A model generated the notes under the pieces. The model saw only the letters and a list, made by a program, of their open reading frames with translations. It ran no database searches and was not told the origin of the DNA. From Clostridia bacterium (GTDB lineage: Bacteria; Bacillota_A; Clostridia; Oscillospirales; Acutalibacteraceae): a DNA stretch of 37,517 bases. The stretch is from assembly GCA_017456015.1 (NCBI GenBank), contig JAFTLL010000009.1, positions 1-37,517 on the forward strand. Direction: 5' to 3'. The translations under genes and the position numbers were made by a program. Below are positions 21,210-29,003 of this stretch, piece after piece; the first letter of the stretch is position 1; each line of letters begins with the position of its first letter.

Positions 21210-22169
21210 ATGAAGTATGTGCATCTAATCGTATTGGGAATTATGTTTCTTTCCATTCTTTTAATACCCCTGATTGCAATGAAGGAGGTCGAACAAAAAA
21301 CAGAAAAAACCTCCTCTGCCCAATCGTCGGAAAGCAAAAAAACGAATGAGGCCTGTTTTCGGGTAAAGTTTACAGACGGTAAGGTGCAAAACATACCGGA
21401 AGAAGACTATATTTGCTCGGTCGTGGCGGCGGAAATGCCGGCGGTCTACGAACCGGAAGCATTAAAAGCCCAGGCTGTTGCGGCCTATACATATGCCTGT
21501 TTTCGCAGAGAATCAAGGAAAAACGAGGCGTACGATGTGTCGGCCGATTCAACAAGTGACCAGGGCTATGTTACTATGGAAAAAGCGGCTGAAAAATGGG
21601 GAGATAAGGCCAAGGAATACACAAAGAAAATACAATCTGCCGTACAGTCTGTACAAGGGTATAAAATCACCTACAACGGGAAACTGATTCTGGCGGCGTA
21701 TCACGCCATATCTTCGGGTAAAACCGAAACCGGAAAAAATGTTTGGGGAGATAATTATGAATATCTTACTTCTGTGGAGAGCATCGGCGACCTGTTGGCT
21801 GAGGGGTATTTAAGCTCGGTCACATTTACACCGGAAGAATTTAAAGCCAAGGCAGCAGAATTGAATGCAACCATGAGCGGTGATGCATCAACATGGTTGC
21901 GGGAACCCTCACGCACAGAAACCGGCATGGTCAAGGAATACCAACTGGGCGATAAACGGGTCGCAGGAACTGATATGCGCAAAGCTTTTGGTTTGCGTAG
22001 CGCAAATTTTGATTTAACCTTTGCTGAAAACAAGTTTACCTTTACGGTGCGCGGTTACGGGCATGGCGCCGGCATGAGCCAAAACGGTGCAAATTACATG
22101 GCAAAGCAGGGGAGTACATTTTTGGAGATTTTAAGTTGGTATTACCCCGAATGTAAGTTGGAAAAATAA
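21210..22169 (+). CDS. spoIID: SpoIID/LytB-domain protein
   Basis: A 319-aa protein related to stage II sporulation protein D, a lytic transglycosylase that removes peptidoglycan during engulfment. An N-terminal membrane anchor (residues ~4-24, VHLIVLGIMFLSILLIPLIA) is followed by the SpoIID domain: DYICSVVAAEMPAVYEPEALKA in two pieces, with catalytic Glu75, QAVAAYTYACF, then the C-terminal GYGHGAGMSQNGANYMA. RBS GGAGGAG precedes the ATG. The gene context does not show sporulation partners (spoIIQ, spoIIP), so a vegetative LytB-like role is possible. Confidence 0.88.
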   Translation: MKYVHLIVLGIMFLSILLIPLIAMKEVEQKTEKTSSAQSSESKKTNEACFRVKFTDGKVQNIPEEDYICSVVAAEMPAVYEPEALKAQAVAAYTYACFRRESRKNEAYDVSADSTSDQGYVTMEKAAEKWGDKAKEYTKKIQSAVQSVQGYKITYNGKLILAAYHAISSGKTETGKNVWGDNYEYLTSVESIGDLLAEGYLSSVTFTPEEFKAKAAELNATMSGDASTWLREPSRTETGMVKEYQLGDKRVAGTDMRKAFGLRSANFDLTFAENKFTFTVRGYGHGAGMSQNGANYMAKQGSTFLEILSWYYPECKLEK

Positions 22170-22195
22170 AAGGGGAGGGAAGATAAAAAATGTGG

Positions 22196-22223
22196 TTGAC
22201 AAACCACCATTTTGTGTTATAAT
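22196..22223 (+). promoter_or_regulatory. Promoter of the CAT-anticodon and Trp tRNA genes
   Basis: -35 TTGACA (22196-22201) and -10 TATAAT (22218-22223), 16-bp spacer. It probably drives both tRNAs, as no terminator lies between them. Confidence 0.8.
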
Positions 22224-22257
22224 ACTTTTGTTACGGCAATAAAAATACTCTCAATAG

Positions 22258-22334
22258 GGGCCATTAGCTCAGTTGGTTAGAGCAACCGGCTCATAACCGG
22301 TCGGTCCGGGGTTCGAGTCCCTGATGGCCCACCA
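22258..22334 (+). tRNA. tRNA with CAT anticodon (Ile2/lysidine type, or Met)
   Basis: A 77-nt tRNA: acceptor GGGCCAT/ATGGCCC plus ACCA, D loop AGCTCAGTTGGTTAGAGC, anticodon loop CTCATAA, T arm GGTTCGAGTCC. C4-G69 and C5-G68 pairs and the CTCATAA loop suit TilS-modified tRNA-Ile2 better than elongator Met (which in many Firmicutes has TTCATAC). Not an initiator. Confidence 0.88.
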
Positions 22335-22403
22335 GCCGCAAGGCTCGGCACCCAAGAGGTTTCTTTTTGAGGTGTCAATTGCGACAAGTTTTATATCGTA
22401 TAC

Positions 22404-22478
22404 AGGGGCATGGTGTCAATGGTAGCATGCCGGTCTCCAAAACCGTTGGTGAGGGTTCGAATCCTTCTGCCCCTGCCA
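22404..22478 (+). tRNA. tRNA-Trp (anticodon CCA)
   Basis: A 75-nt tRNA: acceptor AGGGGCA/TGCCCCT plus GCCA, D arm ATGGTGTCAATGGTAGCAT, anticodon loop CTCCAAA, T loop GTTCGAATC. It ends just before the accessory island. Confidence 0.95.
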
Positions 22479-22485
22479 TCTAAAG

Positions 22486-22528
22486 ACACCATTGAAATCT
22501 GAACCCTCAAGTTCAGACTCAATGGTGT
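22486..22528 (+). terminator. Terminator of the tRNA pair
   Basis: ACACCATTGA (22486-22495) pairs with TCAATGGTGT (22519-22528); an inner CTGAAC/GTTCAG stem extends it; TTTTT follows. Confidence 0.8.
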
Positions 22529-22675
22529 TTTTATTATAAACCCCAGTATTTATGCGGCTTTTCAAGGTCGCATTTTCTTTTTGTCAGCTGGACTAAAAAC
22601 AGAAAAACGCAAATTTTATAATCCGAAGATTTAAAAGCAAACCTTTTCGAACCCATAAGTCTATCTGCACGTGTC
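22529..22675. other. Non-coding boundary sequence between tRNA-Trp and the IS3 element
   Basis: About 150 bp of AT-rich DNA with no ORF, promoter or clear inverted repeat visible. It may contain the left boundary of an insertion, but I could not fix the end. Confidence 0.4.
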
Positions 22676-23815
22676 TTATAAACCCGCGTCCTTCAAGGCA
22701 TATTCCTCTTCCTTCTGTTCGGGAGTCTTGTATTGCAGTTTCCTGTGCGGACGTTTTGTATTGTAGAAAATTATGTACTTGTCAACTGCACTTCGGAAGT
22801 CTGCTTCCGAACGGTATTTCGTGCGATACAATTCCTCACGCTTCAAAGAAGCGAAGAACGATTCCATTACAGAATTGTCATACGGCACGTGCGCTCTTGA
22901 AAAGGAGTGCGTGATGTGCAGTGACCGCATATAGTCGTTCATCGTTTTGGAATGATAGTTGCCACCGCGGTCAGTATGGAATATCAGACTTGAATCCGGT
23001 TGACGTGCTTTATAGGCCATTTGAAAAGTCGACTTTACAAGTTGCGTGCTGTTCGTCTTTCCAATTTTATAGCCCACGACCATACGGGAATACAAGTCGA
23101 TAATCACGCAAATGTAATAAGCGTTTTCGCCGTACTTGAAATAGGTAACATCACTAACCCACACTTCGTTCGGTTTGCACGTGTCAAACTCTTGGTTAAG
23201 ATGATTTTTATACTTGCGGCCTTCGTCCTCGTAAAGTTTCTTTGATGACTGTCGGATGCTGAACAATCCCATATCACGCATAAGCGTGCGTACCATTTCA
23301 TTACTGACTTTGAAGCCTTCACTTTTCATAACTGCCGCAATTTTAGCGGCACCGAAGATCTGATTACTTTCGTCGTAGATCTCCTGTATGCGAAGCCGTA
23401 GTTCCTCCCGACGTTTCGCATACCAAGTGTTGTCTTTCTTATTGCGGAGAACGTGGTTGTAAAACGTTCCGCGGGGAATGTCAAACGCATCGCAGATCAC
23501 GTGCACATTATATTTTCCATAAAGCTGCTCGGCGGCATACAATCGCTGCTTTAATGGTGACTTCGGCGTGCAAGTTGCGGATTTAAGGATTTCAACGATG
23601 CTTTCCAAGCGTGCGACCTTGTTTTCGAGCAAATGGAAATTGCGGATATCCACCGTTCTCCTATTGGCAGCGTTTTGTTCCTCTTGGTAAATGCGTAGCC
23701 AACTGTAAAAGGTACTCTTGGGTATACCGGTGTCAGCAAGGATATGTGCCGACGGTTCACCGGATATAACACGGTCAATGACCGCTTGTTTTTCTTCTTT
23801 AGTATAAGTTCTCAT
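22676..23815 (-). mobile_element. IS3-family transposase (single fused ORF)
   Basis: A 379-aa transposase uniting the OrfA-like HTH (residues ~1-45, ADTGIPKSTFYSWL) with an OrfB-like part: a second helix-turn-helix region (~85-125) and the rve/DDE integrase core. Catalytic residues Asp222 (WVSDVTYF), Asp282 (HTDRGGNY) and Glu318 (VMESFFASLKREE) show the D-x35-E spacing of IS3. Many IS3 members need -1 frameshifting between two ORFs; here the frame is continuous, with no interruption. It appears intact. Terminal inverted repeats and target duplications could not be identified by eye. Located immediately upstream of the RM genes. Confidence 0.9.
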
Positions 23816-23885
23816 ATTTTCAACTCCTATATTGAATGCATTGAAACAATTCTACGATAATTTTCTATATACAGAAATTATTTTG

Positions 23886-23914
23886 CATTGCGCATCTTGA
23901 CACGATGTGCAATG
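23886..23914 (+). promoter_or_regulatory. Palindromic operator-like repeat over the methylase promoter
   Basis: CATTGCGCATC (23886-23896) and GATGTGCAATG (23904-23914) form an 11-bp inverted repeat with one mismatch, separated by TTGACAC. The -35 box lies in the spacer, an arrangement suited to repression. Confidence 0.55.
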
Positions 23915-23925
23915 ATGACTATAAT
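23897..23925 (+). promoter_or_regulatory. Promoter of the methylase-specificity gene
   Basis: Consensus -35 TTGACA (23897-23902) and -10 TATAAT (23920-23925), 17-bp spacer. The predicted start near 23932 leaves a ~22-nt leader. Confidence 0.8.
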
Positions 23926-23954
23926 GTTCATATAACCTATTGGGAGGGAAAAAA

Positions 23955-25817
23955 GTGGATACCATCTCGCAAATGTCATTTGACTATAATGCATGTTTCA
24001 AGAGCATATATTATCAACTTTATTCGAATAGTAGTACTAGTCGAGCAGAACGGATTGTCTCCGATATAACGAAAATTCTACTGTGTAAACTTATTGCCGA
24101 ACAAGAGCAAATTGTAGATATTTCTAATTACACGAAGAAAGAACTCATTTCTTTGTTAAAGGAGAAATATCCGCAGAGTTGTGAAAACTTTGATGATTTC
24201 GCTTTGCGTGATAACGATATCTCTGCGGTCTTAGATGTTCTTAATAACATTTCACTTCTTGATGCGCCATCACATATTATCGGAGATGCGTTTCAAGCGA
24301 TTATTGGCCCAAGAATCAGAGGAGACAAAGGTCAGTTTTTTACACCCAAAGAGTTGGTTGAATGCTTAGTTGAAATCATTTCGCCTTCGTCTAATAGTAC
24401 CATAGTAGACCCAGCTTGCGGAACAGGCGGTTTTTTGACTGCAGCCTACGCATATGCTGAGGCCTCACCGGATGCAGATGCATCTTCTATCAAACTGATT
24501 GGCGTAGATAAAGATAGAGATATGGCGGATATGGCTCTCGCAACAACAGAGATTATCAGTCACGGAAGATCGGAAGTTTTTAATCGGAATTCACTTGAGA
24601 TCGTATCGCCTAAGAGTGACTTACACTATTTATTAAACAGTGCAGATGTAATCTTAACCAATCCCCCATTTGGTGCAAAAATTGGCATTACAGATGAGTC
24701 ACTTCTAAGTTTGTATGAGTTTGGATATAATTGGTCTTATTCCGAAACCGATAAATGTTGGTATAAGCTAAACACAGTAGCAAAAAACCAGGCTCCGCAA
24801 ATCTTGTTTATTGAGCTTTGTGTTCGATTGTTAAAGCCATACGGCAAGATGGCAATTGTACTTCCTGAAGGGATATTCGGCAATAAAACCTTGGGGTTTG
24901 TTTGGGCATACCTAAAAAAACACGGCAGAGTTGTTGCGTTGATTGATTGCCCGAGAAACACGTTCCAGCCATCTACCGATACTAAGACAAATGTCTTGAT
25001 ATTCGAAAAAGGTCAATCTTTTTCGGAGGACATTATTGTTGCTGTTTCGAAAAACTGCGGCCACGATAAGAGAGGACGGGTAACAAACTCTGCGAATGAA
25101 GTGCTTCCTAATGATTTTGCAGCAATTGCCAAAGAGTATACTAGCGGAAACTATACAGAGTTTTGGCGACAAGCTAAATTGATTGGTAACTATTATGTTC
25201 CTCGGTATTTGTCCGAAAAAGCCGTTAGACATGAACCTGGTGAATATATTACAATTGGCGAAATGATTCAGCGAGGATATTTAAGAAAAAAGAGCGGTAA
25301 AGAAGTCGGCAGTGAAGCATATGGAACAGGTAATATTCCGTTTGTTAGAACATCTGATATAATTAATTTTGAGATTTCAAGCGATCCTACTAATGCAGTT
25401 AGTGAAGAAATCTATCAACAATATGCCGCACAGCAGAATCTTGAAATAGGGGATATTCTATTTATAGCGGATGGTCGATACAGGATTGGAAAGACAGCAA
25501 TAATAACTAAGTATAATATTAAAAGTCTAATACAAAGTCATATTGAAATTCTTTCGCTGACACCAGATGCACCATTAACACCTTATGAGTTTCTGTATTG
25601 CTTAAACACAGATGAAGTTCAAAACCAAGTAAGAAGCCTAATATTTATTCAATCAACATTGGGAACGATAGGTAATAGAATTAATGAAATTGCTATTCGT
25701 TTGCCTGACAAGACCGAGGAATGGACTAAAAAAATACACGCATTTCAACATAACATTGAAATGCGTGCAGAGTGTTTATTTGCGTTGAAGGAAAGCGAAA
25801 ACTCATTCGAATTATAA
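23955..25817 (+). CDS. N6-adenine DNA methylase fused to a specificity (TRD) domain
   Basis: A 620-aa HsdM-like gamma-class methylase with a C-terminal HsdS-like target-recognition domain. SAM/catalytic motifs: GQFFTP at residues 126-131, DPACGTGGF at 152-160, and NPPF at 236-239. From ~420 a single TRD-like region follows (YVPRYLSEKAV, GNIPFVRTSDI, GDILFIADGRYRIGK, SLIFIQSTLGT), ending in a helical stretch. One TRD suggests dimerisation on an interrupted palindrome (inference). GTG 23955 follows GGGAGG 7 nt upstream; a TTG at 23940 is too near the transcription start. It is convergent with an HNH-like nuclease and C protein, making an RM system. Confidence 0.88.
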   Translation: MDTISQMSFDYNACFKSIYYQLYSNSSTSRAERIVSDITKILLCKLIAEQEQIVDISNYTKKELISLLKEKYPQSCENFDDFALRDNDISAVLDVLNNISLLDAPSHIIGDAFQAIIGPRIRGDKGQFFTPKELVECLVEIISPSSNSTIVDPACGTGGFLTAAYAYAEASPDADASSIKLIGVDKDRDMADMALATTEIISHGRSEVFNRNSLEIVSPKSDLHYLLNSADVILTNPPFGAKIGITDESLLSLYEFGYNWSYSETDKCWYKLNTVAKNQAPQILFIELCVRLLKPYGKMAIVLPEGIFGNKTLGFVWAYLKKHGRVVALIDCPRNTFQPSTDTKTNVLIFEKGQSFSEDIIVAVSKNCGHDKRGRVTNSANEVLPNDFAAIAKEYTSGNYTEFWRQAKLIGNYYVPRYLSEKAVRHEPGEYITIGEMIQRGYLRKKSGKEVGSEAYGTGNIPFVRTSDIINFEISSDPTNAVSEEIYQQYAAQQNLEIGDILFIADGRYRIGKTAIITKYNIKSLIQSHIEILSLTPDAPLTPYEFLYCLNTDEVQNQVRSLIFIQSTLGTIGNRINEIAIRLPDKTEEWTKKIHAFQHNIEMRAECLFALKESENSFEL

Positions 25818-25829
25818 TGAACAAATAAA

Positions 25830-26507
25830 TTATCTGTTCGCCCTTCCTAAAATGTCGCGAATCCATTCATAGAATTCGTCGAGAGTTTTCGCACCTTGGG
25901 CGATGTTGCACTCGCGGTGACCAAATCCTACATTATCAGGATTATGCATTCTAGGGTTTTTATGACAGGTCTCAATGGCTGCCTTTCCTCTGGCTGCCAT
26001 TGAGAACAATCCATAATTCAAAGGCAAACGACAGATAACACAACAAGTTGAAGAAGATGTCATCGGACCAAAAAGTTCTTCAAGATATTGTTTAATTTCG
26101 AGGGTAGGTTGAGGCGCATCCTCCATTTGATACACCAACCAAGTGAGTTTAGCAGCAACTAAAATACAAGAATCGTAGTCAGCGGCTTTCTCTCTAAGTT
26201 TTGCTACAACGCCTGGTTTTAGATCTGCCATGTTAATTCCATAGCTAGCCAAGGCTTCGTCACTTAACAGCATTACCCACCGTAAAATTCGGTTAGGACC
26301 GGCATCTGCACTTTTCCAAGCTGCACCGGTGGTCATTGTAGCATCTCGTTTTATCTTATCGGCTACTTGCTTATCAACAGACTGCAGATGTCGCAAAAAA
26401 GGGAATTCATCACATCTGCCAGTATGCCCTCTTCGGCAGTGACATCTGTGATCTGCTGCGTCGGCATATTGAGATCTTGTTGGAATAATTCGATTGCAAA
26501 ATTGCAT
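25830..26507 (-). CDS. HNH-like (H-N-N variant) putative restriction endonuclease
   Basis: A 225-aa protein. The C-terminal third has a zinc/HNH-like pattern: CVIC (C156, C159), TCHKNP (H182), DNVGFGHRECN with N192, H197, C200 and N201, like the N-x4-H-x2-CN ending of many HNH nucleases. A second Cys/His cluster is N-terminal (RCHCRRGHTGRC, residues 21-32). The middle resembles a helical recognition domain. Position decides the call: it follows a C protein by 6 nt and converges on a methylase. No named REase family was recognised, so specificity and cleavage are unknown. RBS AGGGG precedes ATG 26507. Exact role moderately certain. Confidence 0.65.
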   Translation of the reverse strand: MQFCNRIIPTRSQYADAADHRCHCRRGHTGRCDEFPFLRHLQSVDKQVADKIKRDATMTTGAAWKSADAGPNRILRWVMLLSDEALASYGINMADLKPGVVAKLREKAADYDSCILVAAKLTWLVYQMEDAPQPTLEIKQYLEELFGPMTSSSTCCVICRLPLNYGLFSMAARGKAAIETCHKNPRMHNPDNVGFGHRECNIAQGAKTLDEFYEWIRDILGRANR

Positions 26508-26513
26508 AGTAAT

Positions 26514-26738
26514 TCACCCCTTTATTTCTGTATTAATTGAGAGTAGACTTGCGGGATCGGTGTTTAGTGCGCTAGCAATGATAACTATATTTTTCAGGCT
26601 AACATTTCTGTCGCCTCGCTCTACGGCTCCAATATATGTTCTATGTAAATCGCATATTTCGGCAAGTTGCTCTTGAGTGAGTTTGTTTTTTATTCTCAAA
26701 GCTCTTATATTGGCGCCAAGGATACTGAAATAATCCAT
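26514..26738 (-). CDS. C-protein-like controller of the RM system (XRE HTH)
   Basis: A 74-aa XRE-type DNA-binding protein closely resembling type II RM controller proteins: LTQEQLAEICDLHRTYIGAV, then ERGDRNVSLKNIVIIASAL. C proteins delay nuclease expression until DNA is methylated. ATG 26738 has AAGGAG upstream; an upstream start at 26774 lies inside the operator palindrome and is rejected. The stop is 6 nt before the nuclease gene's ATG, so the two form an operon. A perfect palindrome sits over the promoter, suggesting autoregulation. Confidence 0.82.
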   Translation of the reverse strand: MDYFSILGANIRALRIKNKLTQEQLAEICDLHRTYIGAVERGDRNVSLKNIVIIASALNTDPASLLSINTEIKG

Positions 26739-26760
26739 AAGATCACTCCTTAATACGATA

Positions 26761-26782
26761 CTTATATAATTCATTATATAAG
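26761..26782 (-). promoter_or_regulatory. Perfect palindromic C-box-like operator and -10 region
   Basis: CTTATATAAT (26761-26770) and ATTATATAAG (26773-26782) are perfect complements with a 2-bp centre. The arms contain TATAAT on the minus strand, 22 bp upstream of the C-protein ATG. No convincing -35 was seen, as in activator-dependent C promoters. Confidence 0.7.
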
Positions 26783-27083
26783 ATTTGTCACAAAAAGTAT
26801 GCAGAATATAAGTAGCATTTTGTTTTTTAGATAAACAGTACTAAGATTTTGCCATTAGTGATAATTTTTCACGATTGCCTGTACCATTTAACAAAAGATC
26901 GGTTGGGGTGTGTATTTTGTATCAAAATAGGGAACTTAACATCGCCTTGAGCGACCGCACAAAACCTCATTATGCCGCAAGATATAACTTCACATCGGCG
27001 TTAGCCGCTACTTCACTAGAATCTACGAGAGTTCGAATTCATACGAAAAAACGAAAAAAATATCTTTTTTGTAGCCCATAGCC
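26783..27083. other. Non-coding AT-rich stretch right of the RM system
   Basis: No credible gene. A 68-codon open frame at 26875-27081 has no RBS and unlike composition. Nothing else is visible. Confidence 0.5.
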
Positions 27084-27214
27084 AAAAAATCGACTTGTGA
27101 AAACAAGTCGATTTTTTTATCCATTGCGAAAGCAATGGCATATCATCAGCCGTAAGGCTGTATATCATCAACAATGGTTACGCCTTTGTTGATGATATAC
27201 ACGGCTTCGCCGTG
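27084..27214. repeat. Cluster of four adjacent palindromic hairpins
   Basis: 27084-27118 is a terminator-like stem (AATCGACTTGT/ACAAGTCGATT). Then CCATTGC/GCAATGG (27121-27138), CAGCC/GGCTG (27147-27160), TATATCATCAACA/TGTTGATGATATA (27161-27199) and CACGGC/GCCGTG (27200-27214). The ATATCATCA motif recurs in both orientations. The module looks like a mobile palindromic unit or REP-like element; I recall similar GATGATATA units in gut clostridia but cannot name one. Confidence 0.55.
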
Positions 27215-27252
27215 ATTATAAAATATGCAGAAGTTTGCACACATAATCCAAA

Positions 27253-27276
27253 AAAGGCCGCATATTTTCGGCCTTT
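27253..27276. terminator. Terminator-like hairpin
   Basis: AAAGGCCG (27253-27260) pairs with CGGCCTTT (27269-27276). No upstream gene uses it obviously. Confidence 0.45.
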
Positions 27277-27484
27277 ATACGGTTATTTGAAAGTCACCTG
27301 GTTATAATAGATATGAAACACTTTTCAGCATGTCAACATTTAATAATCATTAGGAAAAAATACGTATGATGAATATGTATTGATATGCAACGGTCCATTG
27401 CATGTTTTTCGATATAACGGTGTGTCTCCGGCTCCTCTATATGGCGTTCGGTGATGCGTATCCATGCTCGATGACGCTGTTTTT
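27277..27484. other. Non-coding stretch upstream of the gdhA promoter
   Basis: About 200 bp with no supported gene. A minus-strand open frame here lacks an RBS. It may hold decayed coding sequence but nothing is identifiable. Confidence 0.4.
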
Positions 27485-27513
27485 TTCACAGATTTCAAAA
27501 AACAAAATATTAT
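27485..27513 (+). promoter_or_regulatory. Promoter of gdhA
   Basis: -35 TTCACA (27485-27490) and -10 TATTAT (27508-27513), 17-bp spacer; predicted start near 27520. Confidence 0.55.
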
Positions 27514-27520
27514 GTAATAA

Positions 27521-28930
<1,410 letters not shown>

Positions 28931-28962
28931 TATTGGATACCTCAAATAAATATTGTAAAGGC

Positions 28963-29003
28963 AAAGGCGTCGTTTTAGTGATTTTCATTAAAAGACGCCT
29001 TTG
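28963..29003 (+). terminator. Terminator of gdhA
   Basis: AAAGGCGTCGTTTTA pairs with TAAAAGACGCCTTT, followed by GTTTTTTT. Its left arm resembles the leader hairpin's left arm, 13 of 14 bases (28958-28971 versus 27519-27532). Confidence 0.85.

What the first reader, a model, noticed from the sequence alone, without database searches (positions are those of the whole stretch)
23886..26782. Compact RM system: fused M-S methylase converging on a C protein plus small HNH-like nuclease
A type I-like gamma N6-methylase carries its own single TRD in one chain, yet the nuclease is a separate 225-aa H-N-N protein with a C-protein gene, as in type II systems, not HsdR. One TRD per chain predicts a dimer on an interrupted palindrome. 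I know of BstXI-like systems (HsdM-like methylase, separate R) from memory only; the nuclease sequence was not recognised as any named family. The two cassettes converge with a 12-bp gap, so read-through could give antisense control.
Basis: partly seen in the sequence, partly recalled or inferred. Interest (0 to 1): 0.75.

Follow-up and report, generated by a model that had tools for sequence, protein, structure and literature searches.

The report
DraIII-type restriction system, self-targeted methylase promoter
These three genes are an ordinary DNA-cutting defence set of the known DraIII kind; the unreported detail is that the protective enzyme's own target site sits inside its gene's on-switch, so it probably turns itself down.

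Summary
The genes are real, but the nuclease is a DraIII (Pfam PF21586, E 7e-81; 54% identical to crystallised DraIII 4L0K), with all eight zinc ligands and both catalytic residues kept. The methylase is a fused gamma N6-adenine M~S chain with one target-recognition domain, a known homodimeric kind (M.XmnI, M.DrdI). The third gene is a C protein with a C-box. The convergent layout holds in 13 of 13 readable systems.

CACNNNGTG lies upstream of M in 7 of 11 systems, 6 at this position, and ranks first of 704 gapped palindromes; one of the seven was found after the prediction. Four of 11 lack it, including all three Chloroflexota. Likely mechanism: the methylase represses its own gene, as described for AhdI, while C times the nuclease. 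Repression is inferred, not shown. A C-box in the window's M promoter was not supported. New member of a known kind.

The parts
23897..23925 (+). sigma-70-type promoter of M, TTGACA-17-TATAAT
   Evidence: 12 of 12 consensus matches; the same 12 of 12 upstream of M in L007, L001 and L003
23901..23909 (.). CACGATGTG, a match to the DraIII recognition site, overlapping the last two bases of the -35 hexamer; the top-strand adenine at 23902 is the last base of TTGACA
   Evidence: one of 2 matches in the window; 7 of 11 relatives incl. the window have a site upstream of M, 6 at this position
23955..25817 (+). M: fused gamma N6-adenine methylase (M~S), 620 aa; catalytic domain about residues 107-396, type I-like TRD about 391-610
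   Evidence: Pfam N6_Mtase E 2e-34; PADLOC Specificity_I E 3e-12; AlphaFold2 mean pLDDT 83.9
25735..25769 (-). terminator-like hairpin plus T run for the C-R transcript, inside the 3' end of M
   Evidence: 16 pairs; fold z -5.9; like hairpin in L007, none reported in L001 and L003
25830..26507 (-). R: DraIII-family endonuclease, 225 aa, zinc-bound HNH (beta-beta-alpha-Me) type
   Evidence: PF21586 E 7.2e-81; 4L0K E 2e-78; zinc ligands and H182/N201 kept
26514..26738 (-). C: controller protein, HTH_3, likely 74 aa (listed ORF starts at 26774, 86 aa)
   Evidence: Pfam HTH_3 E 2e-15; PADLOC Control_protein E 2e-22; AAGGAG before the ATG at 26738
26759..26772 (+). possible second, inverted C operator (reads TACTTATATAATTC on +), just downstream of the C promoter -10
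   Evidence: p 0.083 in the window; the same spacing scores p < 0.01 in L007 and p 0.010 in L003; inverted pair I7
26801..26814 (-). C-box TACTTATATTCTGC upstream of C
   Evidence: core present upstream of C in 12 of 12 systems scanned (pattern chosen after seeing the sequences)

Best explanation
A complete type IIP RM system of the DraIII kind. Shown by sequence: R is of the DraIII family with its active site; M is a fused gamma N6-adenine methylase with one TRD; C has a C-box; C-R and M converge. Inferred: R and M recognise CACNNNGTG; M acts as a homodimer, one TRD per CAC half-site, and methylates the only adenine of each half-site. On entering a naive cell, M is made at once from its consensus promoter. 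As M accumulates it methylates or binds the CACGATGTG site in that promoter, whose top-strand adenine is the last -35 base, and lowers its own transcription. C accumulates through its C-box, raises C-R transcription and then limits it. R therefore appears late and M is held at a ceiling.
For: R: with PMC3996161. M; homodimeric gamma kind in PMC3874165. C and C-box. Layout 13 of 13. Own site in the M promoter: window; 6 of the first 10 systems against a shuffle mean of 0.27 and maximum of 4 in 2000; an 11th system found afterwards has it at the same place; first of 704 gapped palindromes. Precedent AhdI: M represses its own core promoter, convergent layout, C-controlled (PMC5333194; PMC11736437).
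Against: 4 of 11 systems lack a perfect site: L005 (CATATTGTG) and the three Chloroflexota L142, L143, L145. Over 10 aligned core promoters the GTG half is kept in 10, CAC in 6, so the element may not be only a DraIII site. The systems are related and the -35 constraint is not in the shuffles, so the odds are optimistic. Two of 4.7 expected sites in the window is no significant avoidance and L001 has six in 12.7 kb. No activity, methylation or transcript was measured.
Confidence: 0.65

Rival explanations
1. A DraIII-type system, but the conserved promoter element is an operator for the C protein (or core promoter plus C operator), and M is repressed by C as in Esp1396I; the match to CACNNNGTG is partly incidental.
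For: GTG and neighbouring bases of the spacer are kept even where CAC is lost (10 of 10 against 6 of 10 core promoters). In 6 of the 9 other systems scanned (L001, L005, L008, L137, L143, L145) the best C-box-like match lies at the -10 (p 0.033-0.17). C represses M in Esp1396I (PMC11736437).
Against: In the window the best C-box score in the M promoter is not significant (p 0.43) and lies elsewhere. In L003, where the -35 position reads CATTTCGTG, a perfect CACATTGTG lies between the -10 and the start of M. The blind ranking gives CACNNNGTG upstream of M but the C-box core ACTNNNAGT upstream of C.
Confidence: 0.2
2. A DraIII-type system in which the promoter site is an inherited, functionless part of a strong promoter; M is constitutive and only C-R is regulated.
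For: The -35 TTGACA already gives CA of CAC; relatives share ancestry; 4 of 11 do without the site.
Against: The site persists while M proteins diverge to 44% identity and between clostridial, Bacteroidota and alphaproteobacterial systems; it is displaced rather than lost in L003.
Confidence: 0.12
3. A new compact RM type with an unknown nuclease and antisense control.
For: Tail-to-tail layout is conserved (-13 to +67 nt between stops, overlapping in 9 of 13); a C-R terminator-like hairpin lies inside M in the window and L007.
Against: R is DraIII; M is a known homodimeric gamma kind; no such hairpin was reported in L001 or L003.
Confidence: 0.03

Closest known systems
DraIII (type IIP, CACNNNGTG; PDB 4L0K; PMC3996161)
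   Same: Nuclease family, length, zinc ligands, catalytic residues; a partner methylase gene draIIIM exists.
   Different: Sequence 46% different. The session held no sequence of draIIIM or of a C gene at the draIII locus, so M and C could not be compared with the type member.
AhdI (type II, GACNNNNNGTC, C-controlled; PMC5333194, PMC11736437)
   Same: Convergent C-R and M; C-box control; M's own recognition site in M's core promoter.
   Different: AhdI has separate M and S subunits (2M+2S), here fused; AhdI C is read from a leaderless transcript, here C has a Shine-Dalgarno-like AAGGAG; R is DraIII.
Homodimeric gamma methylases M.XmnI, M.DrdI, M.XcmI (PMC3874165)
   Same: One chain, M~S with one half-site TRD, interrupted palindrome.
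   Different: Different half-site and gap; dimerisation not tested here.
Esp1396I (C-controlled; PMC3758141, PMC11736437 passages)
   Same: C protein and C-box control of C-R.
   Different: C also represses M there; a C-box in the window's M promoter was not supported.
BstXI
   Same: HsdM-like methylase with a separate nuclease on a gapped palindrome.
   Different: BstXI has a separate S subunit with two TRDs; here there is one fused TRD.

Membership tests
DraIII endonuclease family (PF21586) | Full-length match to the family profile above its cut-off | tested here: met
   270 bits against a cut-off of 27, profile positions 1-168 of 168
DraIII endonuclease family (PF21586) | HNH active site H183 and N202 | tested here: met
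   H182 and N201 align with them and are invariant in 35 rows; roles from PMC3996161 section 8
DraIII endonuclease family (PF21586) | Two zinc sites C4 C22 H28 C32 and C157 C160 H198 C201 | tested here: met
   all eight present here, C-terminal four shifted by one; in 35 rows six invariant, H28 and C32 at 90% or more
DraIII endonuclease family (PF21586) | Cleaves CACNNNGTG | not testable with these tools
   only indirect: CACNNNGTG is the top gapped palindrome upstream of M in the family
Homodimeric gamma M~S methylase | Gamma N6-adenine catalytic domain followed by one TRD in one chain | tested here: met
   N6_Mtase 107-396, DPACGTGG then NPPF, Specificity_I 391-610; Methylase_S in 6 of 23 relatives, not in the window's protein
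Homodimeric gamma M~S methylase | Acts as a homodimer on an interrupted palindrome | not testable with these tools
   inferred; the model ends in a long helix, 588-615
AhdI-like self-repressing C-controlled RM | Own recognition site overlapping the M core promoter | tested here: met
   CACGATGTG 23901-23909 inside the promoter 23897-23925, if the DraIII specificity holds
AhdI-like self-repressing C-controlled RM | Convergent C-R and M with C-box upstream of C | tested here: met
AhdI-like self-repressing C-controlled RM | Separate M and S subunits | tested here: not met
   M and TRD are one chain; so it may work like AhdI but is not of that subclass
AhdI-like self-repressing C-controlled RM | Methylation of the promoter represses M | not testable with these tools
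   needs a reporter or in vitro transcription
AhdI-like self-repressing C-controlled RM | Leaderless C transcript | tested here: inconclusive
   AAGGAG precedes the likely C start, which argues against; no transcript start is known
Esp1396I-like (C represses M) | C operator in the M promoter | tested here: inconclusive
   window p 0.43; 6 of the 9 other systems have the best match at the -10 with p 0.033-0.17
BstXI-like | Separate S subunit with two TRDs | tested here: not met
   one TRD-length region fused to M; no S gene among the ORFs of 60 aa or more next to M, R and C

The most novel reading that the evidence does not exclude
DraIII-family systems of clostridial, Bacteroidota and alphaproteobacterial origin share a built-in methylation-sensitive switch: the M promoter is built around the system's own CACNNNGTG site, a methylatable adenine being the last base of the -35 box. 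A fused homodimeric gamma methylase is thus its own repressor, in parallel with C control of the nuclease, and the recognition sequence of such a system can be read from its promoter alone.
Probability: 0.6. Interest if true: 0.5.

Novelty: new member of a known kind. Interest (0 to 1): 0.4.

Why it matters
The enzymes are of known kinds, so the claim of a new compact RM type falls. What remains useful is regulatory. Control by methylation of the promoter is called 'apparently rarely used' in a 2025 review that names CfrBI, AhdI and LlaDII (PMC12707154 passages). Here it looks conserved across phyla within one family, with a methylatable base inside the -35 box. If true, it gives a simple reporter test of how RM systems set the methylase ceiling, and a way to read a gapped-palindrome specificity from promoter DNA.

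Tried and rejected
Novel nuclease family: rejected by Pfam and PDB matches. NCBIfam had no R match and PADLOC one weak match, E 0.0038. MAD2 (methylation-associated defence) as the identity of M: NCBIfam NF047738 matches at 201 bits, far below its cut-off of 720. Type I system: no ORF of HsdR size in 22000-29000. C repression of M as in Esp1396I: not supported for the window. Site avoidance as a sign of specificity: not significant. Integration at the nearby tRNAs: no direct repeat of 14 nt or more of a tRNA end flanking the system was reported in 22200-27600. Host genome: none held. The viral scan with the R alignment gave only L007; with the M alignment the same contig was the only close hit (78%), the other 79 of the 80 kept (of 190) being 23-33% identical. 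No R match in the phage collection; one in plasmids. M relatives on 12 other plasmids, 24-34% identical, were listed and not followed. A literature search for DraIII with methyltransferase, promoter and C protein gave 0 papers, in a library of openly licensed papers only; a search for own-site autoregulation wording gave 1 (Kpn2I paper, listing only).

Papers: PMC3996161 abstract, sections 8 and 12 and passages; PMC3874165 section 34 and passages; PMC12707154, PMC3874152, PMC5333194, PMC11736437 and PMC3758141 passages only. Two ids that I recalled for the primary AhdI and Esp1396I papers were not held, so nothing was seen of those papers.

Full report
OBSERVATION. M runs on + to 25817, with its likely GTG start at 23955. 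R (225 aa) is 26507-25830 on the minus strand and C ends at 26514. The M-R gap is 12 bp. C very likely starts at 26738 (74 aa) behind AAGGAG, because the 86-aa start at 26774 lies inside a TATAAT that looks like the -10 of the C promoter.

NUCLEASE. R matches Pfam DraIII over the whole profile (E 7.2e-81) and crystallised DraIII 4L0K (E 2e-78), with 54% identity over 224 aligned positions. The DraIII paper (PMC3996161, section 8) names zinc ligands C4, C22, H28, C32, C157, C160, H198, C201 and catalytic H183 and N202. All ten are present here, the C-terminal six shifted by one residue. In an alignment of 35 family members they are invariant except H28 and C32, which are at 90% or more. A protein search gave 645 relatives at E <= 0.001 among 872 candidates, best 120 listed. 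The family is rare in genomes: 1 of 398, 2 of 395 and 3 of 301 in three phylum samples, each count including the centre genome, which was chosen for having it.

C AND LAYOUT. C matches control-protein profiles (E 2e-22). A C-box core lies upstream of C in 12 of 12 systems scanned, with a pattern chosen after seeing them, and by eye in L228; L004, nearly identical to L003 there, was left out. Where both gene ends could be read, 13 of 14, R and M converge in all 13, with -13 to +67 nt between stops and overlap in 9. M relatives are 44-78% identical to the window's M over the stretches matched.

THE OWN SITE IN THE M PROMOTER. CACNNNGTG occurs twice in the window (4.7 expected). One copy, 23901-23909, sits in the M promoter, a 12-of-12 match TTGACA-17-TATAAT at 23897-23925. 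The adenine that would be methylated on the top strand, 23902, is the last base of the -35 hexamer. The M start was available in 11 of the 14 systems (contigs of L002, L004 and L006 end too soon). Of the first 10, 6 have the site within 150 nt upstream of M, against a mean of 0.27 and a maximum of 4 in 2000 shuffles. L228, found after this was noticed, has CACATAGTG at the same place and nowhere else in 4.8 kb. In a blind ranking of 704 gapped palindromes, CACNNNGTG is first upstream of M (7 of 11; the overlapping ACANNNTGT is second with 6). The same procedure upstream of C ranks ACTNNNAGT, part of the C-box, first (7 of 13). Six of the seven sites overlap the end of the -35 hexamer (in L137 that hexamer is GTTACA). 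In L003 the -35 position reads CATTTCGTG and a perfect CACATTGTG lies between the -10 and the start of M. L005 has CATATTGTG at the -35 position. CAT in one half-site is the star half-site reported for DraIII (PMC3996161 abstract); whether that matters here is open.

AGAINST. L142, L143 and L145, all from Chloroflexota searches, have no site, so the rule is not universal. Across 10 aligned core promoters (L142 could not be aligned and was dropped) the GTG half is kept in 10 and CAC in 6. Relatedness and the -35 constraint make the shuffle figures optimistic. Site avoidance is not evident. The best C-box score in the window's M promoter is not significant (p 0.43), while in 6 of the 9 other systems scanned it falls at the -10 with p 0.033-0.17, so a second control by C in other members is not excluded.

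MECHANISM. Best supported: M is expressed at once from its consensus promoter, then limits itself through its own site; C delays and then limits R. AhdI is the working precedent: convergent, C-controlled, M repressing its own core promoter by methylation (PMC5333194; PMC11736437). CfrBI and LlaDII are further cases (PMC12707154). AhdI has separate M and S subunits, so this system may work like AhdI without being a member of that subclass. Repression itself is inferred.

ANTISENSE. A 16-pair hairpin followed by seven T for the C-R strand lies inside M's 3' end (25735-25769; fold z -5.9). L007 has the like; none was reported in L001 and L003. The R transcript therefore probably overlaps the last tens of bases of M in this lineage.

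VERDICT. A new member of a known kind (DraIII type IIP RM). The promoter site is the part worth testing. One search of the open library found no paper on it.

Noticed in passing
window 22676-23815 (-): A transposase-like gene (rve, HTH_21; IS3-like by recall) lies 81 bp upstream of the M promoter, and two tRNA genes (Met, Trp, 22258-22478) lie beyond it; the RM system sits between a SpoIID gene and a glutamate dehydrogenase gene.
   Followed up: partly
window 25735-25769 (-); L007 6734-6766: The likely terminator of the nuclease transcript lies inside the methylase coding sequence, so it is constrained both as RNA hairpin and as protein code.
   Followed up: partly
window 26759-26814; L007 and L003 C upstream regions: In the clostridial systems a second, inverted copy of the C-box lies about 42 nt downstream of the first, past the -10, instead of the adjacent direct pair seen in L005, L008 and L137 (p 0.083 in the window, below 0.01 in L007, 0.010 in L003).
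   Followed up: partly
L227 / L228: The DraIII gene of this genome has one in-frame TAG, while M, C, the C-box and the promoter site are there; possibly a decaying nuclease beside a kept methylase.
   Followed up: no
L007 (IMG/VR contig) and L008 (Phaeobacter plasmid pP129_f): DraIII-type systems ride on a contig called viral and on a 15-kb plasmid typed as conjugative; the plasmid annotation calls the nuclease 'hypothetical protein'.
   Followed up: no
window 27084-27117 and 27159-27201: Two strong hairpins (15 nt arms, 100%; 19 nt arms, 95% complementary) between the C gene and the glutamate dehydrogenase gene.
   Followed up: no
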